Shown here one piece after another: positions 1 to 27,724 of a stretch of 29,120 nucleotides of DNA. Within the stretch, counting starts at the first letter, position 1, and every line of letters starts with the position of its first letter. Under the pieces are notes generated by a model. That model was not told where the DNA came from. It ran no database searches and worked only from the letters and a program-made list of their open reading frames with translations. Both the position numbers and the translations under genes were made by a program. Source of the DNA: a virus; the IMG/VR virus record IMGVR_UViG_3300025245_000037, positions 1 through 29,120 of that record. The stretch is one strand, 5' to 3'.

Positions 1-759
1 TTATTCTTCGTGGGCGTCAGAAAGCGTCGCCTTTGCCTCTCGAATTTCTTCTTCTGGCGCAGGCCCAGCGTCGATCAAATCAACCGGGATTAGCTGGACC
101 ATCGCCCGAGCTTCCTCCGGCGTGCATGTCAGCCATCTGTCGAAGTCGTGCTTTTCGATCGAAACCACGGAGCGCTTGTCCTGCACTTCGAGCGGTTTCT
201 TTGTCGCCCTATCGATCTCGGGCCTGTGCATGCGAGACATGATCGGGTGCAGATTGGCATTGATCGTGAGCATGGTGTAGCTCTCCCACACCTTCTCCGT
301 CTCCAGATCCCTCCAGGTGCTCCATAGACCGGCCAGGCCCCAGGGGCGCCCGTCCGCGCGCCGGAAGCTCCACCACTGGTTCTTGCCCGACTCCCAGTTC
401 GGCTCGTCGAAGCTCCAGGCCGGGATGATGCAGCGCCTGCTCAGCTTCCATGCGTCCTTGTATGCCGGCTTCTTCTCGATGCCAGCGAAACGGGCGTTGT
501 GCGTAGCCAGCACCTTGCCTTTCGTCTCGCCCTTGCGCGCCGGCGCGGTCGGGACATGGCTGCTCGACCACGCCGGAATCAGCGACCACTGTCCCACCGC
601 AATCTCGCGTTCGTACTCCGTCTTGTCGACAGCACGACGCATGAACGGCCCGGTGTACATCGGCCGCATGCTGCGCAGCCAACGCTCAGCGCTGCGGGCT
701 CCGATGTACCAGGCCGCCTCAATCTCGCGGTCCTCGGGCGATATGTAACGAGTACACAT
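1..759 (-). CDS. SRAP (YedK/HMCES-family) abasic-site DNA-protein crosslink protein
   Basis: The product has 252 residues and belongs to the SOS response-associated peptidase (SRAP) family. Members crosslink abasic sites in single-stranded DNA through a Cys2 exposed after Met removal. I chose the ATG at 759 because it puts Cys at position 2 (MCTRYISPED); upstream in-frame starts would bury it. Visible family motifs are an NAR motif (Asn88), the RCIIPAWSFDEPNW block with Glu119 as probable catalytic Glu, and HPIMSRMHRPEI near residue 171, where His178 probably replaces the His of the usual HxRMP motif. The stop codon lies at the left window edge, so the gene is complete. A LexA box 53 bases upstream of the start predicts SOS induction. 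SRAP genes occur in chromosomes and in phages, so prophage versus host ownership is not settled. Family assignment is strong; the lesion-protection role is family knowledge. Confidence 0.93.
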   Translation of the reverse strand: MCTRYISPEDREIEAAWYIGARSAERWLRSMRPMYTGPFMRRAVDKTEYEREIAVGQWSLIPAWSSSHVPTAPARKGETKGKVLATHNARFAGIEKKPAYKDAWKLSRRCIIPAWSFDEPNWESGKNQWWSFRRADGRPWGLAGLWSTWRDLETEKVWESYTMLTINANLHPIMSRMHRPEIDRATKKPLEVQDKRSVVSIEKHDFDRWLTCTPEEARAMVQLIPVDLIDAGPAPEEEIREAKATLSDAHEE

Positions 760-786
760 GACTGACATTCTGCGTCGGGAAATCTG

Positions 787-815
787 TTGACGGTCATAAA
801 CCCTGGGAAGATACT
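787..815 (+). promoter_or_regulatory. Predicted sigma70-type promoter for the rightward small-gene run
   Basis: TTGACG (787-792, 5 of 6 to the -35 consensus) is separated by 17 bases from GATACT (810-815, 4 of 6 to the -10 consensus). The -10 overlaps the first LexA half-site. Transcription would start near 822, shortly before the AGGAG ribosome-binding site of the gene at 848. Predicted from sequence only. Confidence 0.55.
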
Positions 816-820
816 GTAAA
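793..820 (-). promoter_or_regulatory. Predicted sigma70-type promoter for the SRAP gene
   Basis: Read leftward, TTTACA (820-815) serves as a possible -35, inside the LexA box. After 16 bases comes TATGAC (798-793), 4 of 6 to the -10 consensus. The spacing is slightly short and the match moderate, but overlap with the operator is what an SOS gene requires. Confidence 0.45.
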
Positions 821-831
821 TCCATACAGTA
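812..831. promoter_or_regulatory. LexA-binding site (SOS box) between divergent genes
   Basis: The site contains CTGT (814-817), eight bases, then ACAG (826-829), and the symmetry extends to TACTGT/ACAGTA. This matches the CTGT-N8-ACAG LexA consensus of enterobacteria, pseudomonads and many betaproteobacteria. It lies between the SRAP gene (leftward, ATG at 759) and the small-gene run (rightward, ATG at 848), and overlaps plausible promoter elements for both directions. Inference: LexA represses both units and DNA damage induces them. Confidence 0.9.
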
Positions 832-847
832 CCTTTAGGAGCTAGAA

Positions 848-1255
848 ATGCCTGAAATCACCCCGCAGCCGAGCTACGTCGTCTGGGCCTCCCTGTTCGC
901 CTCGGAATGGCTACTACTGGCCGAAGGCCGCGGAGACTACGAGAGCTTGTTCTCCCAGGGTCTCGCATTGCATAGGGTCGTTGGCGGCCACCCTGCGAAA
1001 GAGATTGCCGCCGTCCATTTCAAGAACTGCAGCTCCGATAGCGAAGACCTCGTTCGCGACCCTGTGGGAGAGTTCGAGAAGCTGGCGATGCGCGCCGAGA
1101 TCATCATGAATGGCGACAAGCTGAATCCCGCCCTGCAGGAGTTCGCTTTCAATGTCGTCGAGCTGTGCGCCGCGACGGCCGACGGGTTCGGGCACCCGAA
1201 AAAGGGCAACGCTGGCGACCGCATCAGAGCGCTCTATGGACGCCTGCCTTTCTAG
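848..1255 (+). CDS. Hypothetical protein, first gene of LexA-controlled run
   Basis: The product has 135 residues and I do not recognise a family. The start is supported by AGGAG seven bases before the ATG. The gene begins 17 bases after the LexA box, so SOS induction is expected. The N-terminal half (about 1-70) has a hydrophobic stretch with Trp (VVWASLFASEWLLLAEG) that looks like the core of a soluble helical protein rather than a clear membrane segment. The C-terminal part (about 74-134) resembles the whole of the next protein: both contain a pattern LxPxLxxFAxxVxxxCA followed by NAGDxIRAxxxxLP. The two are therefore probably diverged copies of one helical domain. No signal peptide or catalytic motif is visible. 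Confidence 0.75.
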   Translation: MPEITPQPSYVVWASLFASEWLLLAEGRGDYESLFSQGLALHRVVGGHPAKEIAAVHFKNCSSDSEDLVRDPVGEFEKLAMRAEIIMNGDKLNPALQEFAFNVVELCAATADGFGHPKKGNAGDRIRALYGRLPF

Positions 1256-1276
1256 CCTTGGCCCAGTGAGTACGTG

Positions 1277-1501
1277 ATGGAAATTGAGGTTGAGCTGGTG
1301 GAAATGGCGCGCAGGGTCGGTGAACTCGGCCCGGACGATCCGATGCGCCCCACCCTGCGTGATTTCGCCGATGAGGTCGCCGGGCGCTGTGCGCGCATCG
1401 GCGACCTGTATGGCGACTGGGACCGGAATGCCGGTGACCACATCCGCGCTGTGATGCATGAGTTGCCTGGGCTCATGCCCAAGCCCGCGGCGAAGTCCTG
1501 A
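1277..1501 (+). CDS. Small hypothetical protein, paralogue of the preceding gene's C-terminus
   Basis: The product has 74 residues from the ATG at 1277; a GTG at 1274 in the same frame is an alternative. The ribosome-binding site is weak. It aligns by eye over almost its full length with residues 74-134 of the upstream protein, sharing the LxxFAxxVxxxCA block (27-39 here) and the NAGDxIRA block (51-58 here). It follows that gene by 21 bases and its stop lies just before the next ATG, so the genes are probably co-transcribed from the LexA-controlled promoter. Acidic and probably helical, with no known function. It may be a free-standing version of the domain. Confidence 0.7.
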   Translation: MEIEVELVEMARRVGELGPDDPMRPTLRDFADEVAGRCARIGDLYGDWDRNAGDHIRAVMHELPGLMPKPAAKS

Positions 1502-1508: not shown

Positions 1509-1904
1509 ATGCGAGTGAAGATGCGCCGCCGCTACAGAGGCGGCACCAAGCTCAGCAAGCGTGAGTTTGTAGATCAGGACTGGGCCTGCGGCATGCTGGA
1601 GCTGCGAACAGTAGATGACCGCCTGCAGCTCGGGCTCTGGCACGCACGGCCAGGTGACCCGCAGCCTCCGCTAGGAATTCTGTGGCGCCCCGAAATCGTC
1701 GCCTGTGCATCCGACACGATCAGCTTCGCCGGCGCGGAGCATGTGTCCGGGCGCTGGTGCTATCAAGTCTGGTTCTGCGAGTGCCACAACCTTCCCCGAG
1801 AACTGTCATTGAGCCTTCTGGAGAAGGCTGCTGGAGTTGACCATGAACCAAGCGGAATTTCACTTCCCGATTCCCCCGCAGGCGCCGCCCCAACATCGAC
1901 CTGA
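1509..1904 (+). CDS. Hypothetical protein, third gene of the run
   Basis: The product has 131 residues and no recognised family. I chose the ATG at 1509 because TGAGG, overlapping the previous stop codon, sits five bases upstream; longer in-frame starts would run into the previous gene. The N-terminus is strongly basic (MRVKMRRRYRGG). The middle contains several Trp and Cys residues (DWACGMLELR, GRWCYQVWFCECH), which could support a compact beta-rich fold, but no complete zinc ligand set can be assigned. The last 20 residues overlap the next gene by 62 bases in another frame. That is long for a simple operon overlap, so one of the two ends may be altered or not native. Confidence 0.6.
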   Translation: MRVKMRRRYRGGTKLSKREFVDQDWACGMLELRTVDDRLQLGLWHARPGDPQPPLGILWRPEIVACASDTISFAGAEHVSGRWCYQVWFCECHNLPRELSLSLLEKAAGVDHEPSGISLPDSPAGAAPTST

Positions 1905-2109
1905 ACCCATAGAGGCGCCGGTCGATGATGAGCCGCTCGGTTTATCGAGTGTCGCAGCCACCAGGCAGAGCGCCTACATCGTGCGCTTCATGGACTATCC
2001 TCACCCGACGGCAGACATTCCGATGGCCACCCATTCTGGCCAATTCACGAAGGATAGCATTTCGACTCTATGCGGCCGCCTTTTTTTGAATTCTCACGCT
2101 GCTGTTTAA
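1843..2109 (+). CDS. Small hypothetical protein at the edge of the toxin island
   Basis: The product has 88 residues from an ATG at 1843, preceded by TGGAG seven bases upstream. The N-terminal half is Pro- and acid-rich (FPIPPQAPPQHRPEPIEAP) and probably disordered; I recognise no family. The 3' end overlaps the convergent immunity gene by 65 bases. Around 2040-2110 the DNA changes from the GC-rich composition of this run to the AT-richer composition of the toxin/immunity pair. The last 15-20 residues may therefore be read-through into inserted DNA, making this a truncated or fused gene. A short functional protein is also possible. Confidence 0.5.
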   Translation: MNQAEFHFPIPPQAPPQHRPEPIEAPVDDEPLGLSSVAATRQSAYIVRFMDYPHPTADIPMATHSGQFTKDSISTLCGRLFLNSHAAV

Positions 2110-2611
2110 GACTTCGGGATGCCGGGGTGCCGACAGTTTTTGTAGCCCCAAACCCTAGTTGACGTTGCGCGATATATGTCACTCTTTGACCATCGATCTC
2201 CACGTTGAATCCGAGCAATCCATACGAAAAAGAATAGAGGAATTCGAATTCACGGCCATTTTGATTACTTACCACCTTATATGCGTCGCGACACACCCCA
2301 AAAGCGCGCACTACCGTATGGCCTGTAATTTTGAAAACAGCCCCATTTTGATTCCATTCAGAAGGAATGCCGCCTCTTTCACGAGGAAAAGAAAAACTAA
2401 TCCATTCGCTGTTGAAGCAGGAAAACCCTCCATTGCCGTCACAAAATTCTGCGTTAATTGCCCTATCTCCCGAAATGATCATGGGAGGATCAATTTGAAT
2501 CGAAATGGTAGGTCGTCCATCGAGAAGGTTGCTGTATTCGAAGGGGCTTGCGGCTGCATTTTGGATGGTCAGACCCATAGTCAATACAGCGGACCAGACT
2601 GCCTTCAGCAC
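2045..2611 (-). CDS. Putative periplasmic immunity protein for the RHS toxin
   Basis: The product has 188 residues from a GTG at 2611. This start is favoured over the ATG at 2644 because AAGGAG lies about seven bases before it, the GTG sits next to the RHS stop codon (TGA at 2607-2605, four-base-scale overlap), and it gives a clean signal peptide: a Lys, a hydrophobic stretch, then an AAA|S-type cleavage near residue 21. Several Cys residues after the signal (FCDGNGGFSCFN, GVCRDAY, KCYPS) suit disulfides in an oxidising compartment. I recognise no family. Its position directly after a polymorphic-toxin C-terminus, translational coupling and matching export make immunity the best inference. 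It could instead be a secreted accessory protein. The lysine-rich last 20 residues overlap the convergent gene and may not be native. Confidence 0.68.
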   Translation of the reverse strand: MLKAVWSAVLTMGLTIQNAAASPFEYSNLLDGRPTISIQIDPPMIISGDRAINAEFCDGNGGFSCFNSEWISFSFPRERGGIPSEWNQNGAVFKITGHTVVRAFGVCRDAYKVVSNQNGREFEFLYSFSYGLLGFNVEIDGQRVTYIAQRQLGFGATKTVGTPASRSLKQQRENSKKGGRIESKCYPS

Positions 2612-5600
2612 TCGCACTCTCCTTTCCAAAACTGGGTAGCCCATCTATCGGCGTCGATCTCGGCTGGAACAGTCTCCAGTTTTCTGAAAGCATCCCCAGG
2701 GCGCGCCAAATCATGATTTATTTTCATAAGATGCCGAAATTCATGGGCAAACACCAAGCCTTGACTTGGGTTTATGCCAGAACCTAAGTCAAAGAATCCC
2801 TTATTGAATTGCGACGACTGATTTTCATAATTTGTAAACGCATAATTATCTCCTTTGGCGCGCCTTAGTGGATCGCCTATATACGGGTCGATCGCAATCC
2901 GCCAGCGATCAAACTTTTCTAAGAGTTTCGGGCAATTTTTAGCAATCTTTTCCCTCATCGCCGCATTCGCATCTACCAAGTCTTTATATTTTCTGGCCGA
3001 AGCCATTTTTTCCCCAAAGGTACTGCCGGGCAGATCGATTTGCGCCAATCCAAACGGATCAGCTCCGTTCAACGCATCGCTTCCCACGTACGCGAATCGA
3101 TTCCATCCACCATCCAACCCAATCGGATCTGGTTGGCTATATCGTCCCGTCCTCGCGTCATAGCTGCGGAAGTAGTTGTAATTGAGACCCGACTCCTCAT
3201 CCGCATACTGCCCCGGGTACCTCAAATTGAACTTCACGTCCGACACGCTGGTCGCGCCCGGGTTTGGGGTCGCATCAAGGTCGGCGAAGCGGTTCTTTGC
3301 TGTCGTGGGCTTGTCCTCCCCGAAGGCGCTGTAGCTCCACTGCCAGACAGCTTGGCCATCCGAATTGGTTAGCTTCCTTGGAGTGTTCAAGTGGTCGCTG
3401 TGGACGGCATAGGTAGCGTTATTGATGACGGTCGCAATCGGCATCGGCCCATTAGCCGTGGGCAAGTAGATGTACTGCACATGGCCCGCACTGTTCGTGC
3501 CGCCGCTGCCCACCTCCGCGATCAAGTTTCCCTGTTCGTTGTAAACGTAGGCATAACCTAGTTGCTCAGCCTGCGATGTGCTTGGGCTCCACAGCTTCGT
3601 AAAGAAGGCGATGAGGCTTGCCATGAATCCAGGGTCGGCCTCATCGCCTTGTGTGGGTGGGTACAACGGTTCCGTCTTGAACACCCGCTGGCCGAGCGCG
3701 TTGTGCGCATAGCGCGTAGTCGGGCTGACATCGGTCGCACCAGTCGTTGCCGCTGCCAGCCTGCTCTCGGCATCGTAGGTGTAGCTGCGCAGGCCATCGG
3801 TCAAGAGGTCGCCGTTGGCGTTGTAGCCGTAGGTGACGCTGGTGCTGCTCGCTCCGTTGATGGTCTGGGCAAAGCCTGTGAGCTGGTTACTAGATGAGCC
3901 CACCGTATAGGTGCGGCTGGTGGTCTGGCCGTTCAGCACCCGGGTACTACTGGATCGGTTGCCATTGGCGTCGTAGCTGAAGCCCGCCGCGTTGCCCGTG
4001 GCGTCGAAGCTGGTAATACGCCCTACGCTGTTGTAGCCCACGCTCCAAGTCACGTTCGCATTGGCAATGGTGCTGTGGGTCGGATCAGTGTCCCCTGGTT
4101 GCCAAAGGTTCTGCGTGAGGCTCGTGATACGGCCTGCAGCGTCATAACCGTAGCTGCTGAACTCGGTGCTCGTGAGCCGGCCCGCGGTATCGTAGCTGCG
4201 GCTGGCGGCGAGCTTCGGGCTACTGGCGGTGAAGGCCCAGGTCCAGGCGGTGGGCTGGCCCAGCGGGTTCCAGGCGATGCCGCTGACCAACGGGTTGCCG
4301 TTCCAGTTCAGGCCCGTCAGGCGGCCCGTCGCATCGTAGACGTGGCTGAGGGTGCCTCCATTGGGATAGCCGATGCTCGCCAGGGTGCCGTTGGGGTTGT
4401 AGGCGTAGCTGACCTGCTGAACGCTGCCGTTGGCGAGGGTCTGCTTCTTGAGCGTCACTCGCCCGAAGGCATCCCGGGTGTACTCGGTGGTGCCGCTGCG
4501 GTCGAGGATCTCCGACAGATACCCCTTGCTGTTGGCCGTGAGGTCGTAGCGCAGGGTGGTGGTCTTGCCGTCGGCGAAGACCATCCCGGTGGGACGGCCC
4601 AGGGCATCCCGGGTGATGGTCGTGGCTTGGCCAAGGGCGTCGGTGACCTGGCTGGGCAGGCCGAGGTTGTCGTACTGGGTGCTGGAGCCGCCTGTGTCGG
4701 TGCTGCTCTCGGTGGTCGCGTTGCCCTGGGCATCGCGGCCATAGGCGGTCACCACGCCGTTGAAGTCCTTGGCCTCGGTTACAGCATCAAGGGCGTTGTA
4801 CTGCAACTTTGCGAACGCCCAAGTCGAATCGCTAATAGTCTCCACCCGTCTCAAGGCGTCACGCCCGTACCTTAGAACGGTGTGATTCTGACCAGCCGTC
4901 AAGACCGTAAGGTCACCGTTTAAGTCGTAATCGAAGCTCTTGGTCTGATTTGGCCCCGCAGAAAAGGTCGAGATGCGATTAATCCTATTAATAACTCTAG
5001 CCGCGCTCCAAGCGACGTTGCCGGCGTCGTCCTTGATCTGCTCGGCGATGCGATTGCCCATGCCGTCAAGGGTATAGGTCCCGGATTCGCCTCGGTTATT
5101 GCTCCACCCTATCAGACGGTGGGCTGAGTCGTAGGTGTAAGTAACAACCAAGCCCGAAGGGAGAGATACCGACTCAACGGCACCATAGGGCTTATAGGCG
5201 ATGACAGTGGTTTGCCCGCCGACGGTCTCTGTCAACAACCGATCACGCTGGTCATAGGCGTAGGTTGTGACTAGGCCGTTAGGGGCGGTCGAACTCGCCA
5301 CGCGGTTGGCGGCATCGTAGGTATAGCTGGCGACATGACCAAGCGCATTGGTTGACGTGAGGACGTTGCCTCGGGAGTCGTATGTGTAGCTGGTCACCGC
5401 GCCATTAGGCTCGGTAGCAGTGGCCACGAGTCGCTGAGCGTTGTAACTCCACTGCCATACCTGGGTCCGGCCGGAGGCTGCGTCCGTGACAGTTTTGGAC
5501 AGCACATTGCCTGCCGAGTCGTGAGAAAACGCGGTGGTACGACCGATTTCAGTGACCAACACAGGCAGCGAGTAGACCGAATGCCACTGCACGTTCATCG

Positions 5601-7170
5601 TTTGCGCTTCCGACCTGCGAGCACCTCGAACGATCGTAGTCGGCAATCTTCGCCCCACATCCCAAGTAGTGTTTGTCTCAACGTTATTGAAGTCAGTCTC
5701 AGAAGTTATGAGTCCATTCACATCTTGCACACGGCTACGAGCGTCAGGCTCATTCAGACCCGTCGTCAAAGAATTGGCAAGCACGACGACAGGGCTTTGG
5801 CCAAGGCTATAACTATAGGAGCGCGAGGTGCCAAGAGGATCAGTGACGGTGGCGAAGCTGTCCGATGGATAACTGACCTGATAGCGGTCGATAGAACCCG
5901 AAAGTTCAGAGCTGATTGCCCGACCTTGGCTGTCGTAAGCGAAGGTCGCAAAGCGATTCCCAGCCTCGTCGAACATCCCAGTTAGTGCATAAGGGAACGA
6001 GGCGCTTTCGTATACAAAGTTGCGAGTCTTGCCGTCGGGATAAGTGACGCCAGCCAGTCGGCCCAACGTGTCATAGCCATAGCTGATGGTGCGGGAGTCT
6101 GGCGTGGCGAGCGTGGCCAACCTACCTGCGCTGTCATAGTTGAGCGTGAGCGTGCGCCCAAAGACATTGTTGATGGAAGTGAGCTGCCCAGCGCTGTTGT
6201 AGACGAAGGTTGTTATTCGACCAGCGCGATCTGCAGCGGAGCGCAGCTTGCCGTCTGCGGAGAAAACCAGAGTGAAGTCATCTGTAACTCGGCGATAAGT
6301 CCAAGTTCCATCGCTGTTCTGAACGAGTGAGTCCGCGTTGTTCACCGCATTCCAAGTGGAAGCGCCAACCGCTTTCAAAAACTGTCGCGCCGATCCATCC
6401 GCCTTTACAACCGAAGCGACATCCGGACTTGTAGTCGAAGGGACAACCATACTTTCCGCATAGTTGTGTACCCAGGCTTTTCCCAACGCTCCGGCGGGCC
6501 GCGACGCGTCGGAGCCCCACGAGCTACGGTAAATCCGTGAGAACTCCAAAGGCGATGGACCACTATCTGAATAGTCGACTTCAAGCCGATATTTTTCCCC
6601 GGAAGCAGGAAGAATGGGATTGGTTGTACTACCTCCGGCCATACACATATTCACCTCGGCCGGAACACAAGCATTTTGCTTAGCGCTTACCTGAAACGCT
6701 GTCTTGCAGCCACAATTGCCTGACCATGGATCCACTACGCTGTTAGCGGGGCATCGTCTTTCCGACACCCAAATCCCGAGATTCGTATTTCCTTCTGAGA
6801 CCCCGTGAAAATACTGTTCAACAATACACCTCCCATCCCCTTCGGAAGGATACGGAGGAAGAGCATCAGACCCTGGCGCGTCTCTAAACTCCCATTTGAG
6901 CTCGATCGAACCTGTATTAAATGCGTCCACCACAGCTTCACAAGCCAGTTTTGCGGTACGAAACGTGCCCAAATATCGTCCTCCGTAGTCGATATATGAA
7001 CTAAATACTGGCTCTCTTTCAACCCAAGCATGCACCTCAACATGAGCGCCAAAGCCCATCAAACATAAAAATATCTGAAGAATATTTTTACGAGGTCCTG
7101 CAGTTGCTAGCGACAAAATTTGGCTCAAAATCCGACGCGCGTTAACAGACTTTTTAATCAAACCCCTCAT
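2605..7170 (-). CDS. Secreted RHS-repeat polymorphic toxin with HExxH metalloprotease-like C-terminus
   Basis: The product has 1521 residues; the ATG at 7170 follows GGAGG by six bases. A hydrophobic stretch (about 30-41) ending at HVEVHA|W near residue 48 predicts Sec export. A Cys-containing region (about 77-176) leads to a DUF6531-like entry (about 177-220, PILPASGEKYRLEVDY). Then come YD/RHS repeats (about 300-1240) and the RHS core with DPIGLDGG and NGADPFGL (ending near 1375). The last 146 residues are the variable tip. They contain HEFRH (1476-1480, bases 2745-2731) and, 24 residues later, Glu1504 in EIDADRWA, a gluzincin-like or ImmA-like third zinc ligand pattern. Inference: the RHS shell encloses a zinc protease toxin, neutralised by the next gene. 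Both ends are AT-richer than the repeat core, typical of tip exchange. No PAAR, VgrG or T6SS gene is adjacent. Being downstream of the lysis genes suggests phage or island cargo. Confidence 0.9.
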   Translation of the reverse strand: MRGLIKKSVNARRILSQILSLATAGPRKNILQIFLCLMGFGAHVEVHAWVEREPVFSSYIDYGGRYLGTFRTAKLACEAVVDAFNTGSIELKWEFRDAPGSDALPPYPSEGDGRCIVEQYFHGVSEGNTNLGIWVSERRCPANSVVDPWSGNCGCKTAFQVSAKQNACVPAEVNMCMAGGSTTNPILPASGEKYRLEVDYSDSGPSPLEFSRIYRSSWGSDASRPAGALGKAWVHNYAESMVVPSTTSPDVASVVKADGSARQFLKAVGASTWNAVNNADSLVQNSDGTWTYRRVTDDFTLVFSADGKLRSAADRAGRITTFVYNSAGQLTSINNVFGRTLTLNYDSAGRLATLATPDSRTISYGYDTLGRLAGVTYPDGKTRNFVYESASFPYALTGMFDEAGNRFATFAYDSQGRAISSELSGSIDRYQVSYPSDSFATVTDPLGTSRSYSYSLGQSPVVVLANSLTTGLNEPDARSRVQDVNGLITSETDFNNVETNTTWDVGRRLPTTIVRGARRSEAQTMNVQWHSVYSLPVLVTEIGRTTAFSHDSAGNVLSKTVTDAASGRTQVWQWSYNAQRLVATATEPNGAVTSYTYDSRGNVLTSTNALGHVASYTYDAANRVASSTAPNGLVTTYAYDQRDRLLTETVGGQTTVIAYKPYGAVESVSLPSGLVVTYTYDSAHRLIGWSNNRGESGTYTLDGMGNRIAEQIKDDAGNVAWSAARVINRINRISTFSAGPNQTKSFDYDLNGDLTVLTAGQNHTVLRYGRDALRRVETISDSTWAFAKLQYNALDAVTEAKDFNGVVTAYGRDAQGNATTESSTDTGGSSTQYDNLGLPSQVTDALGQATTITRDALGRPTGMVFADGKTTTLRYDLTANSKGYLSEILDRSGTTEYTRDAFGRVTLKKQTLANGSVQQVSYAYNPNGTLASIGYPNGGTLSHVYDATGRLTGLNWNGNPLVSGIAWNPLGQPTAWTWAFTASSPKLAASRSYDTAGRLTSTEFSSYGYDAAGRITSLTQNLWQPGDTDPTHSTIANANVTWSVGYNSVGRITSFDATGNAAGFSYDANGNRSSSTRVLNGQTTSRTYTVGSSSNQLTGFAQTINGASSTSVTYGYNANGDLLTDGLRSYTYDAESRLAAATTGATDVSPTTRYAHNALGQRVFKTEPLYPPTQGDEADPGFMASLIAFFTKLWSPSTSQAEQLGYAYVYNEQGNLIAEVGSGGTNSAGHVQYIYLPTANGPMPIATVINNATYAVHSDHLNTPRKLTNSDGQAVWQWSYSAFGEDKPTTAKNRFADLDATPNPGATSVSDVKFNLRYPGQYADEESGLNYNYFRSYDARTGRYSQPDPIGLDGGWNRFAYVGSDALNGADPFGLAQIDLPGSTFGEKMASARKYKDLVDANAAMREKIAKNCPKLLEKFDRWRIAIDPYIGDPLRRAKGDNYAFTNYENQSSQFNKGFFDLGSGINPSQGLVFAHEFRHLMKINHDLARPGDAFRKLETVPAEIDADRWATQFWKGECEC

Positions 7171-7631
7171 ACTGACCCTCCAATTCCAGTCGCAGCATGA
7201 ACTTCACCGCGACTTTATATTTAGACCTGCAAGCAGTTCCTGCTGCACTATGAATCCTCCAAGATCCCCCACCCAAGGGAAGCAATCTTTTTTATTCATT
7301 CCTCTGCATTGGATACAGTTAGTTTCAGATTAGCCGATATCTCAAGGGCAGACAACAAAAATAAAAAACAAAACAACACTCAAAATACAAAAACGAGTAT
7401 AAAAGTCTTCTTTTGTTGCCACGCGCTGACTTTTTAATTGGCTTCACTTCCGTTTCCCTCTTGCTCTTAAATGCACACACAAGTCCGAACGTGCGTGTCG
7501 GCCTCTGGCAACGCGACCAAACTTCGATCCTCCTAGCGCCCTGCCTGAGCTTCAACCTGGATGGTGGCCAGCGATGGCATCCGAGGCTCGCGCTCGCATC
7601 ACTGTCGTGGCGCAACACTCGCCGCAATTGG
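7171..7631. other. AT-rich gene-free interval between lysis genes and RHS toxin
   Basis: These 461 bases separate the last lysis gene from the toxin and are clearly AT-richer than the phage genes. A T-rich stretch in the leftward RNA (about 7340-7385) and an inverted repeat with 7-base arms AAAAGTC/GACTTTT (7401-7434, 20-base loop) could end late transcription, but no textbook hairpin-plus-U-tract is present. Near the toxin start TATAAA occurs on the minus strand without a convincing -35. A 100-codon minus-strand reading frame (7325-7627) has composition unlike a real protein. Inference: the toxin has its own transcription control, and this may mark the edge of imported DNA. Confidence 0.5.
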
Positions 7632-7910
7632 TTAGGTGTCGCCGGCAGATCGCTTGCACTGCATCAGTGCGATCAGAAGTTCGCCCTCGTAACCTTCCCG
7701 GATTTCTAGCTCAGCGAGTACCGACGCAGCGAATTGGTCAACGTCCACGCCAGGCCTGAGTGCCTCGGTCGGCATTGCCGGCCGAGCAGGTACTTCAACC
7801 GAGCATTCGATTGGGACTGGAACCTTCACCAGCTGAAGCGAGGTTGCATGGCACCCGGCAAGCACGGTGCAAAGCCCGATCGCGGTCCAAGAACGCGCGA
7901 GAACCATCAT
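7632..7910 (-). CDS. Rz1-like outer-membrane spanin lipoprotein (o-spanin)
   Basis: The product has 92 residues from the ATG at 7910. This start forms an ATGA overlap with the Rz stop, follows GAGGAGG by eight bases, and gives a lipoprotein signal with lipobox LAGC and acylated Cys20; the ATG at 7931 would lengthen the n-region without a better site. The mature part starts with a Pro-containing segment (KVPVPIECSVEVPARPAMP) and then a helical region, as in o-spanins. With the Rz-like protein it should bridge inner and outer membranes and fuse them at the end of lysis. It is last in the endolysin-Rz-Rz1 order. Call based on position, lipobox and overlap; o-spanins share little sequence. Confidence 0.82.
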   Translation of the reverse strand: MMVLARSWTAIGLCTVLAGCHATSLQLVKVPVPIECSVEVPARPAMPTEALRPGVDVDQFAASVLAELEIREGYEGELLIALMQCKRSAGDT

Positions 7911-8257
7911 CGCCTTTGCCTCCTCAACCATTCGTCAAAACGTAGCTGCGCACTCGCGCAGGCGTCACCGGGCACGGCCGCCGGCGTCGCGAGAATCGTC
8001 TGCGCTCGCGCCTCGTGGCCGAGCGCCACAGAACGCGCTGCAGCCTGCGCCTTCTTCGCCTCGGCCGCGCGCTTGTCCGCCAGGTCGCGAAGGTCTTCCG
8101 TCGCGTCGCTGCAGGCGGATGCCGCCGCCCGTGCATCGTCGCGCTGCAGCACCGAGGTGGCCGCCTTCTCGCGCGCTTCGATCCACGCCCAGCCGAGCGC
8201 AGCATTGCCGGCCACGCTCAGCCCGAGCGCTACCAACAGCGCTTGCACCGGGCTCAT
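7907..8257 (-). CDS. Rz-like inner-membrane spanin (i-spanin)
   Basis: The product has 116 residues. It starts with an ATG that overlaps the endolysin stop as ATGA. One N-terminal membrane segment (about 6-26, ALLVALGLSVAGNAALGWAW) acts as an uncleaved anchor. It is followed by an Ala/Glu/Arg/Lys-rich periplasmic coiled coil (about 28-85) and a basic C-terminus. This is the usual i-spanin layout. The outer-membrane partner starts at its stop codon. Its role is disruption of the outer membrane after murein breakdown. Sequence identity among spanins is low, so the call rests on topology and neighbours. Confidence 0.83.
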   Translation of the reverse strand: MSPVQALLVALGLSVAGNAALGWAWIEAREKAATSVLQRDDARAAASACSDATEDLRDLADKRAAEAKKAQAAARSVALGHEARAQTILATPAAVPGDACASAQLRFDEWLRRQRR

Positions 8258-8838
8258 TTGCTCAGCACCTTGTAGGCCCGGGCCGTGGCCGTCTTGCGCT
8301 CGGCCAGCTTCAGCCGCGCCTTGCCGTTGATACGGCCGGTGATGTCGTAGACATCGCCGCGCTCGGCGGCCGGCAAACAGTCCTTGAAGACAGCGAACAC
8401 CCAGCAGGCCGAGAGCGCAGCATGCTCCGGCTGCAGCAGCAGGTCGGGATTGCCGCGATAGTCGGCACTGAGCGCCCGCCCTGCAGCGATGTAGGCATCC
8501 TCCCAGGTCAACTGGATGAGGCCGCGTCCGTGGAAGCCCTTGTAACGCAGCATGCTCAGCGCACGCGGGTTGCGCACGTAGTCCTCGGCGCGGTAGCCGC
8601 CCTGCACGAACAGGCTCGGGAAGATCTCGCGCAGCCGCGCCGGCGTCGTGTAGTAGAGATCTTCTTCAACCTTCGAGAGGTTTTCGGACTCGATGGGGAG
8701 CTGCCCGAGAAAGCACGCCATCGCGTTGTCCGAGTGGATGCGGAAGCGGTTCATGCCGTCCGCCAGGTGCACCACGTAGCGCTCGGCGTTGGCGCGCGTG
8801 GCGCCGGTGCAGTCGATGAGGGTTTGAGTGTCGATCAT
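8254..8838 (-). CDS. GH19 chitinase-like phage endolysin
   Basis: The product has 194 residues and resembles glycoside hydrolase family 19 lysozyme-type endolysins, which cut the glycan strand of peptidoglycan. The ATG at 8838 overlaps the upstream stop as ATGA. PIESENLSKVEEDLYYTTP (48-66) matches the GH19 catalytic segment, with Glu50 as likely acid and Glu59 as second carboxylate; the usual AHES is changed to PIES here. The GFHGRGLIQLTWEDAY block (101-116) is the conserved substrate-binding segment. No signal peptide or SAR domain is seen, so export should depend on a holin. Spanin genes follow immediately. Family length is typical for a single-domain enzyme. Confidence 0.93.
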   Translation of the reverse strand: MIDTQTLIDCTGATRANAERYVVHLADGMNRFRIHSDNAMACFLGQLPIESENLSKVEEDLYYTTPARLREIFPSLFVQGGYRAEDYVRNPRALSMLRYKGFHGRGLIQLTWEDAYIAAGRALSADYRGNPDLLLQPEHAALSACWVFAVFKDCLPAAERGDVYDITGRINGKARLKLAERKTATARAYKVLSK

Positions 8839-9245
8839 GGTTTCTTCATTTCCTTTGCCGCCGTCTTGGCGGCTTGGTTGGCGGTCTGTGCGGCGGTCTG
8901 CGCCGTGCTCGCGGCCTCGCCCGCTGTCAGCGCGGCATTCGCCGCGGTGCCGGCTGCTTGGTCCACGCGGACGGCAAGGGCCTTGAGGCTGGTATCGAAG
9001 GTGTCGCGCAGGCGCGCGATTTCGGCCAGGTGGTCTTCGCGCTGGCGCAGCGCCTGTGCCTCGGCATTGCGGGCGGACCAGAAGTAGCCGGTGCCGAGGC
9101 CGCCGAGGAACAGGCTTCCGACTACGCCCACGGTTTCCAGCAGCCGGCGCCACTGGCGGGGTACGCGCACGCGCGGCTGTTCGTCGAGCGGCGCGCGATC
9201 CGAGTCGGTATGCGCGTCGTTGAGGTGCGAGTTATTGAGGTGCAT
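8835..9245 (-). CDS. Single-TM coiled-coil protein of the lysis module (holin candidate)
   Basis: The product has 136 residues. An N-terminal charged region (1-37) leads to a membrane segment (about 38-56, VGVVGSLFLGGLGTGYFW), then a long helical part ending in Ala/Thr heptad-like repeats (about 95-130) and a basic tail. It overlaps the upstream gene by 14 bases and the endolysin by the four bases ATGA. Position immediately before the endolysin suggests a holin or holin regulator, but topology alone cannot decide between that and a structural membrane protein. No named family is recognised. Confidence 0.65.
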   Translation of the reverse strand: MHLNNSHLNDAHTDSDRAPLDEQPRVRVPRQWRRLLETVGVVGSLFLGGLGTGYFWSARNAEAQALRQREDHLAEIARLRDTFDTSLKALAVRVDQAAGTAANAALTAGEAASTAQTAAQTANQAAKTAAKEMKKP

Positions 9246-9603
9246 GGATTTGTTCCTTCAACTGGCGAACCTGATCGCGCAGCAGCCCAAGCTCCGTCGT
9301 CTGCGCGGCGAGGGTTTCGCTCATCACCTTGAGTTGCCCTTTCATCTCCCATACCTGCTGCAGCGCCTCGTTGCGCTCGGCCGCGAACTTGTCGGCGCGC
9401 TCTTCGGCCTTCACGCGCGCGGCGCGCTCGCCTTCGAGGAGCTGCTGCCAGGTCGCGAGCGCGGCAATCTGCCCCTCGCTGTCCGCGCGCTCTTTCGCTT
9501 CGGTCGGCTGCTGTGCGCGCCAGACCTTGTATCCACCGGCGGCCGACAGAATCAGAAACGCAAGTTGCGCGATCGGATTGCCGGCGATGTCGCCCACGTC
9601 CAT
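9232..9603 (-). CDS. N-terminal TM plus coiled-coil protein of the lysis module (holin candidate)
   Basis: The product has 123 residues. An N-terminal hydrophobic segment (about 8-27, NPIAQLAFLILSAAGGYKVW) is followed by a charged coiled coil over most of the rest (about 36-118). The ATG at 9603 is preceded by AGAGG. It is the first gene after the tail block and overlaps the second TM/coiled-coil protein by 14 bases. The pair precedes the endolysin, the place usually held by holin and antiholin. It has the architecture of small class III-like holins or pinholin partners, but no family match can be claimed by reading. Confidence 0.62.
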   Translation of the reverse strand: MDVGDIAGNPIAQLAFLILSAAGGYKVWRAQQPTEAKERADSEGQIAALATWQQLLEGERAARVKAEERADKFAAERNEALQQVWEMKGQLKVMSETLAAQTTELGLLRDQVRQLKEQIHAPQ

Positions 9604-9614
9604 GAGGTGCCTCT

Positions 9615-9632
9615 TCTCTTTCTCTCTTTAGA
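9615..9632 (-). repeat. Purine-rich intergenic motif, copy 1
   Basis: Read leftward, CTAAAGAGAGAAAGA begins at the stop codon of the 77-residue gene and leads to the holin-candidate gene. The same 15 bases occur at 14872-14887. The run may act as an extended ribosome-binding region. Confidence 0.5.
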
Positions 9633-9861
9633 TTTCGACTTGAACGAAGGGCATCGAGGGCGCTTGGCCTTCAATGACGCCATCGCGCACAAAGACCTGA
9701 TCGCCCACCGCGCCCTCGCCGCGCGCGGTCAGCACACCGCCACCGGGCAGCGCCAGCCGCGCCACGTCGCCATCGATGGCGGTAATCGTTGCGATCTGCA
9801 GCGGATAGCTCGGCAACAGGTCGAGGAAGGCGGCGTAGGGATTCGTCGAGGCCATGCTCAT
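9628..9861 (-). CDS. Small tail-associated hypothetical protein
   Basis: The product has 77 residues. The ATG at 9861 forms an ATGA overlap with the 631-residue tail protein, which selects it over the ATG at 9855. Residues about 20-77 look like a small beta barrel: alternating hydrophobic strands with a Gly-rich turn (ALPGGGVLTARGEGAVGDQVFVRDG), similar in style to OB or KOW folds. It ends the tail operon, so a small tip component or chaperone is likely; no family is recognised. A CTAAAG-starting purine-rich run follows its stop codon. Confidence 0.75.
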   Translation of the reverse strand: MSMASTNPYAAFLDLLPSYPLQIATITAIDGDVARLALPGGGVLTARGEGAVGDQVFVRDGVIEGQAPSMPFVQVEI

Positions 9862-11753
9862 GCCTCCATGTGGGTTTCGAGGGTGATCGACTGGCGCAAC
9901 ACCGGGCGCTGCCAGTTCACGGCCACGCTGCGCACGAGGCCGAGGAAGGTCTCTGCGCCCTCTTCGTATTGCACGAGCGAGCCCGGATGGATGACGCCGG
10001 TTTCCGGGCGCACCTGAAGGCTCAGCGACACATTTGCCTGCGCGCCGGTGTCGGAGAGGATCGAAAGGCCGCGCTGCATGACGGCATCGCTGTGCGTGAT
10101 GAGCGGGTGCGTCACCATGTCGGCCACGCTGTCGCCGGCGGTGCCGCTGCGCGTGGCCTGCCCCATGACGCCGTCTTTCGTGGTGCCGGCGACGAACACA
10201 CGGTTGTAGTCCGGCTTCGTGAGCGGCTGGATGCCCTCGACCTCCACGGCCGCCGCCGGCAGCACGAAGTCGGGCCCGAGGGTGGACCAGTACCACGGCG
10301 CGGCCGGATAGCGCGGCAGCACGCGCAGCGTCGCGTCGGTCGCATGCGGCTGCACGATGGCGCCGGCGGCGCTCGCGATGTCAAGCACGGCCCCGATGTG
10401 GCTTCCCTTGAAGGCCCACGTTCCACCGGGCACCGCCCAATCGGTCAGGCCGAAGTCGATGCCCCAACCGATGTTCACGCCGTTGAGCGTGAGCGCCAGG
10501 TCGAGCAGTTGGGCGGCGCTGCGCGTGCCAGCCGCCGCGTGGTTCAGGATCGGCGCATACGGGGCGTCGAGCGCGGCGGCGCGGCCCTTGCCCTGCACGC
10601 TCACCTTGCCATCTGCAAAGCGGCGATCCCTGCTGCAGTCGGTCGCGGCCAGCCGGTACGGCACGCCGTTGACGGTCGCCAGGATGTCCACCGGGGCCAC
10701 ATGGATGCCGCGCCGGATGACGGGCCACGCGGCGGCCGGCAGCGTCGCCGACCAGCGCCACGTCCACGAAGAGGCGTCGAGGCTCATCGAGAAGGCCAAG
10801 GCCTCCAACGCCTCGCCGCTGTCGAGGCGCACGAGGCTGATGCTGTTCTGCACGGTGTAGACCTCCAGAATCGGCACGACGACGGTTTCGCCGGTGCCAG
10901 GCGGCGGACGGTGCCGCTCGCAAACAAAGATGAGCGTGGTCGCGTGCTGCTGCCGCTCGCGGAAGACGAGGGTTGTCGAGGGCTCGTAGCACGGGGATTC
11001 GGTGGGCGGCACGATGACCGAGCGGCCCGGCAGCGGGTACATGGCGGCCTGCCAGCGCGACACGCTGCCGACATCGAGCTGCAGGGCCGGGCCGAAGCGG
11101 TCGGCATGGTGGGCCTGCATGCGCTGCGCCTCCTGCCAGCTCGCGCGCACGGCGCGGCGCAGGCGCTCGGCCTCCTGATAGCGCACGCCGACGGGCGCCG
11201 GCGCCAGGCGCTGCGCCTCCTGCCAGCGCGCCGCAGCGGCTGTGCGCGCGCGCACCGCCTCCTGATGGCGGATGCCGGTTCCGGCTTCGAGCTGGCGAGC
11301 GGCCTGATACCGCGCGGCTGCAGCAGCACGCGCGCGACTTGAGTCCTGCCAGACTGTCGCGGTGCTCGACAATGCCGGCGCTGCGGTCTGCCATACGGAC
11401 ACCCGCCCGACGCGCGCACGCTGCGCGCTCTGATGCTTCGCGACGGCGCCGCCCTCGATCTGCCGCGCGACCTGCCAGCCGCTCGACACCTTGCCCATGA
11501 GCGGCCGGCGCGCCGCGCTCGCGTACTTCGCCACGCCGCCCACCATGAACACGGGCAGCGGGATGCGGCCGGCCGCCGTCGCGAGCGGCGGCATGGTCGC
11601 CGTGGCGCCACCGGACACGAAGAAGCTCGGCAGCGGGATGCGCCCGAACGCATAGGCCGCACCGCTGCTCGGTTCCTCGGGCTCGCCGAACACGAGAATG
11701 TTCGGCGGGCCGTCGAGCGGCGGCTTGCGAAAGATGAGGTCGTCAACCGCCAA
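9858..11753 (-). CDS. Distal tail (hub-like) protein with 14-residue tandem repeats
   Basis: The product has 631 residues from a TTG at 11753, chosen because GAGG lies six bases upstream and this gives only an 11-base overlap with the preceding gene; the open frame extends further upstream but with composition typical of a shadow. Residues 37-73 carry two copies of GRIPLPxFxVxGG. Residues 93-240 hold eleven units with an aromatic or His every 14 residues, mostly followed by Q-x-A (see repeat entry). From about 300 the protein is beta-rich, with VQGKGRAAALDAPYAP and a C-terminal half resembling phage tail hub proteins. It is coupled to its neighbours on both sides. I infer a tail-tip or hub role. 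It does not resemble lambda gpJ. Confidence 0.8.
   Translation of the reverse strand: MAVDDLIFRKPPLDGPPNILVFGEPEEPSSGAAYAFGRIPLPSFFVSGGATATMPPLATAAGRIPLPVFMVGGVAKYASAARRPLMGKVSSGWQVARQIEGGAVAKHQSAQRARVGRVSVWQTAAPALSSTATVWQDSSRARAAAAARYQAARQLEAGTGIRHQEAVRARTAAAARWQEAQRLAPAPVGVRYQEAERLRRAVRASWQEAQRMQAHHADRFGPALQLDVGSVSRWQAAMYPLPGRSVIVPPTESPCYEPSTTLVFRERQQHATTLIFVCERHRPPPGTGETVVVPILEVYTVQNSISLVRLDSGEALEALAFSMSLDASSWTWRWSATLPAAAWPVIRRGIHVAPVDILATVNGVPYRLAATDCSRDRRFADGKVSVQGKGRAAALDAPYAPILNHAAAGTRSAAQLLDLALTLNGVNIGWGIDFGLTDWAVPGGTWAFKGSHIGAVLDIASAAGAIVQPHATDATLRVLPRYPAAPWYWSTLGPDFVLPAAAVEVEGIQPLTKPDYNRVFVAGTTKDGVMGQATRSGTAGDSVADMVTHPLITHSDAVMQRGLSILSDTGAQANVSLSLQVRPETGVIHPGSLVQYEEGAETFLGLVRSVAVNWQRPVLRQSITLETHMEA
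11034..11477 (-). repeat. Coding tandem repeat: eleven 14-residue units in the tail protein
   Basis: In the 631-residue protein, the residues Trp93, His107, Trp121, Trp135, Tyr149, His163, Trp177, Tyr192, Trp206, Phe220 and Trp234 lie 14 apart with one 15-residue step. Most are followed by Q-x-A-x-R, as in RWQEAQRL. The DNA units (about 42 bases) have diverged while the protein period is kept, pointing to an old repeat under selection, not recent slippage. Confidence 0.9.
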
Positions 11754-12153
11754 TTGCGACCTCGCCGACGAAGAAGGTTCCGCCCTGATAGAGCTTCGCC
11801 TCGGGATCGCCCTCTGGCGGGTTCTGCACGATGAGCTTGACCTGACCCGAGCCCGAGGGGCCGCTGATGCTGAAGTCGGCCACCCAAGTGCCATCGGCCT
11901 TTTCGAGGCGGCCCCATGTGGCGATGCCAGTCGCTACGGCCAGATCGCCGGCGGTATCGGCCTGCACGAGCGAAAGCGCGCCATCGACGACAGCGCCGAC
12001 AGGCACCGCGAGGACCGCCGCAGCCAGCAGCGTGCCGACAGCACTTCCCTCGGGCGGCTGCACGCCGCCACACACGAGGAAGCGGGCACCCTCGCCGAGG
12101 TATGCCACGAGGCCCGGCCCGCCCAACATGGCGTTGATGGCGAGCACGTTCAT
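11743..12153 (-). CDS. Hypothetical tail protein, Gly/Ala-rich
   Basis: The product has 136 residues. The ATG at 12153 overlaps the stop of the LamG-domain gene as ATGA. The first 60 residues contain a Gly/Ala/Val-rich part (GTLLAAAVLAVPVGAVVDG) that might be a membrane-like or buried helix-forming segment. The remainder is beta-rich, with WVADFSISGPSGSGQVKLIV near 90-110. No signal peptide and no recognised family. Position between the putative receptor-binding protein and the hub-like protein, with tight coupling on both sides, suggests a tail-tip component. Confidence 0.78.
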   Translation of the reverse strand: MNVLAINAMLGGPGLVAYLGEGARFLVCGGVQPPEGSAVGTLLAAAVLAVPVGAVVDGALSLVQADTAGDLAVATGIATWGRLEKADGTWVADFSISGPSGSGQVKLIVQNPPEGDPEAKLYQGGTFFVGEVAIGG

Positions 12154-13658
12154 GGCATCAGCTCCACCTTGCCATTCGCAAGGGTCAGGCCGTCCGTGAT
12201 GACCGCGCGCTTTCCGTGCGCCAAGTAGTACGCGATGACGGTGTAGCTCTGTAGTTCGTCGACGAACTGGAAGTCGTAGCCTCCATCCACGCCGCTCCAT
12301 AGCTCCCGAACCACAAGACCATCCGCCTCACGCACGAGCCGCACACGACACGGATAGGGCTTGTTCAGCGGGTTCACGTAGTCGAGCGTGAACCCACGCA
12401 CGCGGCCGACGCCATTGCCGAGCACTCCCGTGGAGTAGTCATTGCGCCCCTTGGCGAGCTGCGCGAGTTTGGTTTGGCCGTAGGGCAACGCAATGCTGGC
12501 TGCGGAGGGCACGACGATCACACTGGATGGCGCAACGCGACCTTGCACACGGTTGACAACGATGCCCCCTCCGAACGGATCTGCGGGCGGGGTGAAGTTG
12601 GCCGCGTAGAGGCCGCTTCGCGTGATTCGCACCTCATCGATCTTGCCGCCCCATCCACCATTCACGGCGTCGTAGCCCGACGCGCCAAGCGTGATCGAAG
12701 AACCCACCAAATAGTTGTTGGCGTCCGCATAGCCCGCGCCCACCTGCACGCCATCCAGAAACAGGCGCGTCGTGCCAGAGACACGGCTCAGCGCGACGTG
12801 CGCCCACGCGTTCAAGGGGAGCGAACCCGAAGCCTGAACGATGACATCCGCGCCGTTCACGTTGAGCACGGCGCGATTGCTGGCGTTGACATACAGCGTC
12901 GGGTACGCGCCGTTGACGCCGGCCGGACGGAAGTCGAAGAGGATCGCGAAAGAAAGAGGCGTGATGCTCCGATAGGCCCAGCACTCCAGTGTGAAGTCTT
13001 CGTTTCCGAACGCGAGCGTCCCTTCGCTCGCAATCTGCACGGCATCCTGAACGGGACCGGCGCCGTCGCCGCGCCCTGTACCTGCGAGCGACAAGGCACC
13101 CGTGCCGAACTTCGGCGAGGTAGTTGAGATCGCCGCGCCCGCGCGAAATGTGATGCTGTGCCTCTTCACGTCGGTTGTCGAGGTCGCACCGTTCGCCCCA
13201 TCGAAATGCAGCAGAACGCGCGCGGCCTCGGAGTCGAGCGCGCCAGGGTTCGAAGTGGTCTTGACGCGAGGCCCCGGCCAAGTGATGCCAGCCACCACCG
13301 CGAGGTCGGTCCAAGCGGAGGCATCGTCGGAGAACTGGATGTGTACCAGCAGGGGAAACTTCGACACATCGGCAGCCGCACCCAGCCGGATGTCTGTGAC
13401 GGACACGGCGCCACCGGCACCGAAGTCCCAGGACAGCACGAGGCCCCTCACCGCTGCCGCGCTCCATGCTGCGCCAGTGGCCGTGTTGTCATCCTGTAGG
13501 CTCGCCACCGTGCCGGAAGTCGGCGCCGTGTTCGCAGTCAGGGCGGCAGGGGCATCGACGCGTGACCCCGCCGACAGCAAGTGGAACTCAGTGAGCTCCA
13601 AATCGCCGCCTGCATACGCTTCGATGCTGGTCGCGCGCCAGTAACGATGTGCCGCCAT
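12150..13658 (-). CDS. LamG/concanavalin-like domain tail protein (putative adsorption protein)
   Basis: The product has 502 residues. Residues about 1-125 look like an F5/8 type C-like (discoidin-type) beta sandwich, starting with RYWRATSIEAY and containing WDFGAGGAVSVTDIRLG. Residues about 147-360 form a LamG/concanavalin-like lectin domain: LLHFDGANG start, FGTGALSLAG, FTLECWAY, WAHVALSR, TRLFLDGVQVG, then GGKIDEVRITRSGLY. The last about 125 residues are a separate beta-rich part. Such modules bind glycans, so this is the best candidate in the window for host-surface recognition. It starts one base after the stop of the 402-residue protein. Catalytic function is not indicated. Confidence 0.85.
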   Translation of the reverse strand: MAAHRYWRATSIEAYAGGDLELTEFHLLSAGSRVDAPAALTANTAPTSGTVASLQDDNTATGAAWSAAAVRGLVLSWDFGAGGAVSVTDIRLGAAADVSKFPLLVHIQFSDDASAWTDLAVVAGITWPGPRVKTTSNPGALDSEAARVLLHFDGANGATSTTDVKRHSITFRAGAAISTTSPKFGTGALSLAGTGRGDGAGPVQDAVQIASEGTLAFGNEDFTLECWAYRSITPLSFAILFDFRPAGVNGAYPTLYVNASNRAVLNVNGADVIVQASGSLPLNAWAHVALSRVSGTTRLFLDGVQVGAGYADANNYLVGSSITLGASGYDAVNGGWGGKIDEVRITRSGLYAANFTPPADPFGGGIVVNRVQGRVAPSSVIVVPSAASIALPYGQTKLAQLAKGRNDYSTGVLGNGVGRVRGFTLDYVNPLNKPYPCRVRLVREADGLVVRELWSGVDGGYDFQFVDELQSYTVIAYYLAHGKRAVITDGLTLANGKVELMP

Positions 13659-13659
13659 C

Positions 13660-14868: not shown

Positions 14869-14871
14869 GGT

Positions 14872-14887
14872 TTCTTTCTCTCTTTAG
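14872..14887 (-). repeat. Purine-rich intergenic motif, copy 2
   Basis: The same CTAAAGAGAGAAAGA sequence as at 9615-9632 follows the large modular tail gene, including its stop codon, and precedes the ATG of the 402-residue virion protein. It supplies the purines for that gene's ribosome binding. Confidence 0.5.
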
Positions 14888-18872: not shown

Positions 18873-18873
18873 G

Positions 18874-21591: not shown

Positions 21592-21638
21592 CGGGAAACC
21601 TTTAGGGAAGTGGGAATAGAAGCGGAAGCCAGTGCGGC

Positions 21639-21699: not shown

Positions 21700-21707
21700 A
21701 GGAAGCG

Positions 21708-22496: not shown

Positions 22497-22516
22497 GGTG
22501 GCTCCGTTGAAAGGGT

Positions 22517-22927: not shown

Positions 22928-22929
22928 GG

Positions 22930-27723: not shown

Positions 27724-27724
27724 C

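What the first reader, a model, noticed from the sequence alone, without database searches (positions are those of the whole stretch)
2045..7170. Sec-exported RHS protein with HEFRH protease-like tip and a coupled signal-peptide immunity candidate
Seen: signal peptide on the RHS protein, HExxH plus downstream EIDADRWA in the last 146 residues, and a GTG-started exported partner overlapping the stop codon. Both products should meet in the periplasm. Known: polymorphic toxins pair variable tips with immunity genes. Inference: an undescribed zinc-protease tip type with a periplasmic immunity protein, without T6SS adaptor genes nearby.
Basis: partly seen in the sequence, partly recalled or inferred. 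Interest (0 to 1): 0.72.

Follow-up and report, generated by a model that had tools for sequence, protein, structure and literature searches.

The report
Prophage-borne RHS toxin with protease-like tip
A virus living inside a bacterium carries what looks like an exported antibacterial toxin with a swappable protease-like warhead and a matching antidote gene; this is a new example of a known kind of bacterial weapon, notable mainly for being phage cargo.

Summary
An RHS protein (1521 aa, window 7170-2605, minus strand) begins with a signal-peptide-like segment and ends in a 146-residue tip with HEFRH and EIDADRWA; a GTG-started, exported-looking partner (2611-2045) overlaps its stop codon. Six other IMG/VR records share the RHS core. 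One (G001) keeps tip and partner (72% and 48% identical); the other five have five different tips and different next genes, one of them Imm21, and two records keep another member's immunity gene as an orphan. A near-identical phage (G003) lacks the cassette here and carries a differently tipped one between terminase and portal genes. Best reading: a Sec-exported polymorphic toxin with its immunity gene, carried as swappable phage cargo. The tip is probably a zincin-type metallopeptidase of a family absent from Pfam and NCBIfam; fold, toxicity and neutralisation are untested, and the structure models failed. Sec-type RHS toxins with metallopeptidase tips and prophage-borne Rhs loci are already described, so this is a new member of a known kind.

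The parts
2605..7170 (-). RHS/YD-repeat protein gene, 1521 aa
   Evidence: Pfam RHS_repeat 18 stretches E 2e-74, DUF6531, RHS; TIGR03696 core to residue 1375
7030..7170 (-). signal-peptide-like N-terminus (residues 1-47, perhaps cut after VHA)
   Evidence: hydropathy and inspection; no dedicated predictor run
3046..6630 (-). conserved RHS core, residues 181-1375 (predicted beta-cage)
   Evidence: shared with six other IMG/VR records; matches solved Rhs proteins such as 7q97, 8qja, 7pq5, 8cp6
3115..3129 (-). first DPxGL motif, DPIGL (residues 1348-1352)
3046..3060 (-). second DPxGL motif, DPFGL (residues 1371-1375); predicted aspartyl autocleavage after L1375
   Evidence: catalytic Asp of the second motif shown in P. 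laumondii Rhs1 (PMC8636562 section 8)
2608..3045 (-). variable tip, residues 1376-1521; putative zincin-type metallopeptidase toxin domain, GC 46%
2731..2745 (-). HEFRH (H1476, E1477, H1480), putative zinc-binding and catalytic residues
   Evidence: invariant in G001
2647..2661 (-). EIDAD (E1504-D1508), putative third zinc ligand
   Evidence: invariant in G001
2045..2611 (-). partner gene, GTG start, 188 aa, putative periplasmic immunity protein, GC 47%
   Evidence: four cysteines shared with the G001 partner after the signal-peptide-like segment
2549..2611 (-). signal-peptide-like segment of the partner (residues 1-21)
   Evidence: inspection
7171..7631 (.). 461-bp gap of 48% GC between the Rz1-like gene and the RHS gene; could hold a promoter
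   Evidence: no sigma-70-like site found on the minus strand of 1700-8000
7632..7931 (-). Rz1-like lipoprotein gene, upstream neighbour
   Evidence: best PHROG match is of unknown function (phrog_3580, E 4e-11), with a weak one to Rz-like spanin (E 0.07); called Rz1-like by overlap layout and inspection
7907..8257 (-). Rz-like spanin gene
   Evidence: layout and N-terminal hydrophobic segment by inspection; no significant Pfam or PHROG match
8254..8844 (-). endolysin, chitinase class I (GH19) domain
   Evidence: Pfam PF00182 E 6e-07

Best explanation
A temperate phage carries a Sec-exported RHS polymorphic toxin and its immunity gene as cargo. Inferred working: the RHS protein is exported to the periplasm and folds as a closed cage holding the tip; aspartyl autocleavage after L1375 cuts the tip loose. 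The protein leaves the cell through type II secretion or when phage-induced lysis opens the cell. In a susceptible relative the tip, a zinc metallopeptidase, is toxic, most likely in or via the periplasm. Siblings carrying the prophage survive because the partner, encoded in overlap with the toxin, exported to the periplasm and probably disulfide-stabilised, blocks the tip. Recombination at the core-tip junction swaps tip and immunity gene together between phages. Shown here: anatomy, conservation of the pair in one relative, tip and next-gene swapping on a constant core, orphan immunity genes, phage location, presence or absence at one site. Inferred: export, cleavage, zinc peptidase activity, toxicity, neutralisation, release route.
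For: RHS repeats and core. Seven RHS proteins in seven virus records share residues 181-1376 (42-94% identity per block), while five of six relatives fall to 8-27% in the tip; only G001 keeps it, and no tip other than the window/G001 pair finds another. The next gene, with the start codon I chose, begins between 6 nt before and 13 nt after the last base of the RHS stop in 6 of 6 relatives. In G003 it is Imm21 (E 3e-22). G004 also carries the G002 next gene (98%) and G005 the G004 one (84%), as orphans. Window tip and partner stay together in G001 (72% and 48%). Tip GC is 46%; none of 392 overlapping windows of the phage body is as low (minimum 58%). Virus record. G003, with 14 of 15 listed ORFs from 9232 to 27774 at 90-100% identity, has 1.37 kb of other DNA where the window has 6.2 kb with the cassette. 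In 4 of 7 records (window, G001, G002, G004) the cassette lies within about 1.3 kb downstream of lysis genes.
Against: No experiment. Only one relative of tip and partner, so no deep alignment; both structure models have pLDDT about 43-44 and support no fold. A 146-residue tip is small for a metallopeptidase (recalled). Imm21 is the only next gene with an immunity-family match; the other relatives' next genes match nothing or uninformative families. In three of the seven RHS proteins the hydrophobic segment begins 66-96 residues after the first possible start, so export needs a later start codon. No promoter was found on the right strand. How the tip would enter a target cell is unknown.
Confidence: 0.75

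Rival explanations
1. Same polymorphic toxin system, but the tip's HExxH is used for self-processing or is degenerate, and the toxic activity is something else in the tip.
For: HExxH alone is short; no profile, PDB or fold support. The core already offers a junction protease, so self-processing is not needed but not excluded.
Against: HEFRH and EIDADRWA are invariant in G001 while 28% of tip positions vary; the combined motif is rare by chance (0.017% of shuffles); a separate exported partner would be unnecessary.
Confidence: 0.15
2. The toxin is aimed at eukaryotes (protists or insects), like the YD-repeat toxins of APSE phages, and the partner is an accessory or chaperone rather than an immunity protein.
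For: APSE phage records encode proteins annotated as YD-repeat toxins that match the RHS core distantly (about 24% identity); Tc toxins share the cage (PMC8636562, passages). That APSE toxins act on insects is recalled.
Against: Tip and next gene swap together, one next gene is Imm21 and orphan copies occur, as in antibacterial toxin-immunity pairs.
Confidence: 0.1
3. The RHS protein is a phage structural or adsorption protein and the partner is a chaperone.
For: Phage genome; a paper notes that similar repeat motifs are involved in carbohydrate binding (PMC7259588 section 18).
Against: Absent at this site in a near-identical phage and present elsewhere there with another tip; outside the tail genes; signal-peptide-like N-terminus; low-GC tip.
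Confidence: 0.04

Closest known systems
Sec/T2SS-exported RHS polymorphic toxins with zincin-like tips (Tox-MPTase1-5; PMC3482391, passages read)
   Same: Signal peptide, RHS repeats, C-terminal HExxH tip.
   Different: The tip matches no Pfam or NCBIfam model. Those tips are tabled there without an immunity family, whereas here a linked exported partner is present; here the gene is phage cargo.
Bcn-A, secreted RHS bacteriocin of Xanthomonas perforans (PMC7259588; abstract, passages, sections 18, 20, 21 read)
   Same: RHS protein of similar size (1,398 aa), active in the supernatant, activity lost in a type II secretion mutant, downstream immunity gene ORF5.
   Different: Five-gene locus in which the abstract names ORFA, ORF2 and ORF4 as required (ORF3 too elsewhere in the text); the word prophage does not occur in its main text. 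Its sequence was not compared here.
MuF toxins of temperate phages (PMC5576092, passages read)
   Same: Polymorphic toxins carried by temperate phages, with small genes next to them.
   Different: MuF toxins belong to the packaging module and are proposed to be delivered with the phage; this one has RHS repeats, a signal-peptide-like start and lies after the lysis genes.
Prophage-borne Rhs kin-discrimination loci of Myxococcus xanthus (review PMC10047993, passages read)
   Same: Rhs effector loci that differ between strains and map to prophages.
   Different: Other lineage; no sequence comparison made here.
T6SS Rhs effectors (P. laumondii Rhs1/Tre23; PMC8636562, passages and section 8 read)
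   Same: Same cage family and double DPxGL junction (separated by 17 residues there, 18 here).
   Different: That protein has a prePAAR/PAAR region and an Eag chaperone; neither was found in the RHS protein here.

Membership tests
RHS polymorphic toxin with immunity | YD/RHS repeats and RHS-associated core | tested here: met
RHS polymorphic toxin with immunity | Conserved core with variable C-terminal tip across relatives | tested here: met
   7 proteins, 6 distinct tips
RHS polymorphic toxin with immunity | DPxGL junction with the catalytic aspartate | tested here: met
   DPxGL at 1348 and 1371; the leading P of PxxxxDPxGL is A here (sequence)
RHS polymorphic toxin with immunity | Linked downstream gene that changes with the tip | tested here: met
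RHS polymorphic toxin with immunity | Tip toxic, next gene product neutralises it | not testable with these tools
   needs expression assays
Sec/T2SS-exported RHS toxin | N-terminal signal peptide | tested here: inconclusive
   hydropathy and inspection support it in 4 of 7 RHS proteins near the first start; 3 of 7 need a later start; no predictor available
Tox-MPTase / zincin toxin tips | HExxH motif | tested here: met
Tox-MPTase / zincin toxin tips | Match to a described toxin-metallopeptidase profile | tested here: not met
   no Pfam or NCBIfam family for the tip at E up to 1
Tox-MPTase / zincin toxin tips | Zincin fold | tested here: inconclusive
   model pLDDT 43.8; no fold search made on it
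T6SS Rhs effector | PAAR/VgrG region or Eag partner | tested here: not met
   no such Pfam domain in the RHS protein; none among the window genes that were scanned (not all ORFs were scanned)
MuF phage toxin | MuF domain beside portal/terminase | tested here: not met
   no MuF match in the RHS protein; gene lies after the lysis genes
Bcn-A-type bacteriocin | Sequence relation to Bcn-A | not tested
   Bcn-A sequence not at hand

The most novel reading that the evidence does not exclude
A lineage of temperate phages carries RHS toxin-immunity cassettes as interchangeable cargo at several sites in its genome (after the lysis genes, between terminase and portal, near a regulator gene), so that prophage induction releases sealed RHS cages by lysis, a colicin-like use of the phage's own lysis machinery, and near-identical phages confer different immunities on their hosts. 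The window's member brings a new family of small gluzincin-like protease tips with a disulfide-bonded periplasmic inhibitor.
Probability: 0.35. Interest if true: 0.62.

Novelty: new member of a known kind. Interest (0 to 1): 0.42.

Why it matters
If right, lysogeny with one of these phages gives the host both a weapon and an antidote, and phages that are otherwise nearly identical sort their hosts into different compatibility groups. It also adds a small metallopeptidase-like tip with a candidate inhibitor, a pair for which target compartment and inhibition can be tested directly.

Tried and rejected
Relatives of tip or partner: two genome-contig scans with the tip found none. Viral scans with the tip (and with the G001 tip) and with the partner alignment found only G001; a partner scan with the window sequence alone found none, so it missed even G001. 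These scans need short, near-exact peptide words and miss distant relatives. Tip and partner gave no plasmid match, the tip no phage match (the partner was not searched in phages), and window 1-25000 no near match in phages. A second core scan found the same six records.

Weak PDB matches of the tip to matrix metalloproteases around HExxH (E 0.11-1.2) did not return with the two-sequence profile and are not used. Structure prediction of tip and partner failed (pLDDT 43.8 and 43.2), so no fold search was made. The promoter/terminator scan of 1700-8000 gave no minus-strand promoter-like site and two minus-strand terminator-like sites (at 7961-7946 and 6849-6829), fewer than the shuffles give (2 against 6.7), so it is not used. 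The T6SS and MuF readings were rejected (membership test). The host organism was not identified.

Full report
What is there. The window is a 29,120-base virus record with portal, S49 peptidase, major capsid, tape-measure and endolysin genes on the minus strand, then overlapping genes that I call Rz- and Rz1-like from their layout (PHROG support is weak), a 461-bp gap of 48% GC, and the RHS gene 7170-2605, 1521 aa. Pfam finds 18 RHS-repeat stretches, DUF6531 and the RHS domain; NCBIfam's RHS-associated core ends at residue 1375. Two DPxGL motifs, at 1348 and 1371, are separated by 18 residues. In P. laumondii Rhs1 two DPLGL motifs 17 residues apart mark the autocleavage site and the Asp of the second is catalytic (PMC8636562, section 8). 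Cleavage here would free residues 1376-1521.

The tip. It holds the only HExxH of the protein (H1476-H1480) and, 23 residues on, an ExxxD (E1504-D1508). Of 200,000 shuffles of the tip 0.26% contain HExxH and 0.017% HExxH-x(15-35)-ExxxD. The one relative found, in IMG/VR record IMGVR_UViG_2823732373_000001 (G001), is 72% identical with both motifs aligned and intact; pN is 0.20 with pS near saturation (0.77), so the protein is under selection. HExxH followed by a Glu on a later helix is the gluzincin pattern (recalled, not from a call). No significant Pfam, NCBIfam or PDB sequence match supports a family, and AlphaFold2 with two sequences gave pLDDT 43.8. So metallopeptidase is a motif-level inference, which I hold at about 0.7.

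The partner. The GTG at 2611 overlaps the end of the RHS gene and follows AAAGGAGAG; the G001 partner has an ATG at the matching place. In both records a longer ATG reading upstream is open too; I prefer the overlap start because it places the signal-peptide-like segment at the N-terminus. The two partners share four cysteines after that segment (columns 57, 65, 107, 185), as expected for a periplasmic, disulfide-bonded protein (inference). Identity is 48%. No Pfam or NCBIfam family matches the partner at E up to 1; a PHROG of unknown function matches weakly (E 0.03). Its model is poor.

Is it a polymorphic toxin? A core scan of viral contigs returned six records with the same RHS core, G001 among them (found through short peptide words, so more may exist). 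Aligned to the window protein, residues 181-1376 are 42-94% identical per block in all six; beyond 1377 five of six drop to 8-27% and only G001 stays high (82% and 67%). No tip finds another in these records except the window/G001 pair, so seven proteins carry six distinct tips. The gene after each RHS differs with the tip; with the start codons I chose it begins from 6 nt before to 13 nt after the last base of the RHS stop in 6 of 6 relatives. In G003 it is Imm21 (PF15589, E 3e-22), a named immunity family. G004 holds, besides its own, a 98% copy of the G002 gene, and G005 an 84% copy of the G004 gene: orphan immunity genes. Against: the five other tips match no Pfam or NCBIfam family, and the other four next genes match either nothing or families that do not speak of immunity (Coa1, E 6e-06, for G002; weak matches below cut-off for G005 and G006). 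Signal-peptide-like segments begin at residues 9-30 in 4 of 7 RHS proteins; in G002, G005 and G006 they begin at residues 66-96 of the longest reading and need a later start codon.

Phage cargo. G003 matches the window's phage at 90-100% in 14 of 15 listed ORFs from 9232 to 27774 (the exception, 12150-13658, is at 45%). Its DNA aligns to window 58-1485 and 7686-9300, but holds 1.37 kb of other sequence where the window has 6.2 kb with the cassette. G003 has its own RHS-Imm21 cassette between the terminase gene and the portal region. In G004, a more distant phage of the same kind, an RHS cassette with another tip lies about 1.2 kb after the Rz1 counterpart. In G001 and G002 the cassette lies downstream of a muramidase or a holin-lysozyme pair; in G005 it lies near an HTH regulator gene. 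Hence 4 of 7 follow lysis genes within about 1.3 kb. Tip, partner and N-terminal region have 46-48% GC, the core 59%, the phage body 67%.

How it may work. Export through Sec is likely. Release is open: activity of the RHS bacteriocin Bcn-A of Xanthomonas perforans is lost in a type II secretion mutant and ORF5 downstream gives immunity (PMC7259588, sections 20 and 21), but the position after the lysis genes also fits release at lysis. I give release by lysis about 0.35. The exported partner argues that the dangerous encounter is in the periplasm.

What is known. Sec/T2SS-exported RHS toxins and five zincin-like tip families found with RHS repeats are described (PMC3482391, passages); phage-borne polymorphic toxins are described (MuF, PMC5576092, passages); prophage-borne Rhs loci act in Myxococcus kin discrimination (review PMC10047993, passages). 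Nine paper searches listed no paper on this phage cassette; they cover open-licence PMC papers only, and for only part of the hits was listed. The verdict is a new member of a known kind, with an unlisted tip family and an informative phage setting.

Noticed in passing
window 12150-13658 (-): A tail-region gene with a Laminin_G_3 domain is only 45% and 42% identical to its counterparts in G003 and G004, while the ORFs on either side (11743-12300, 13660-14868) are at 83-93%: probably a variable receptor-binding or decoration protein.
   Followed up: partly
window 28212-29120 (+): A PIN_8-domain reading frame (E 1e-51), open to the end of the record and on the opposite strand, lies upstream of the portal gene, where G003 has its RHS-Imm21 cassette: possibly a second cargo site.
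   Followed up: partly
window 1-825 (-): SOS response-associated peptidase (SRAP) gene (PF02586, E 1e-21), with counterparts in G002-G005 but none found in G001.
   Followed up: no
L013 8258-8773 and L014 7352-7633: Orphan immunity genes: G004 carries a 98% copy of the G002 next gene, G005 an 84% copy of the G004 one.
   Followed up: yes
L011 129-7554: In G003 an RHS gene and an Imm21 gene sit between the terminase large subunit gene and the portal region, inside the packaging module.
   Followed up: partly
L015 1-2300: In metagenome contig G006 a portal gene (PF05136) lies about 1 kb upstream of the RHS gene; unclear whether this is a shortened phage or an assembly effect.
   Followed up: no
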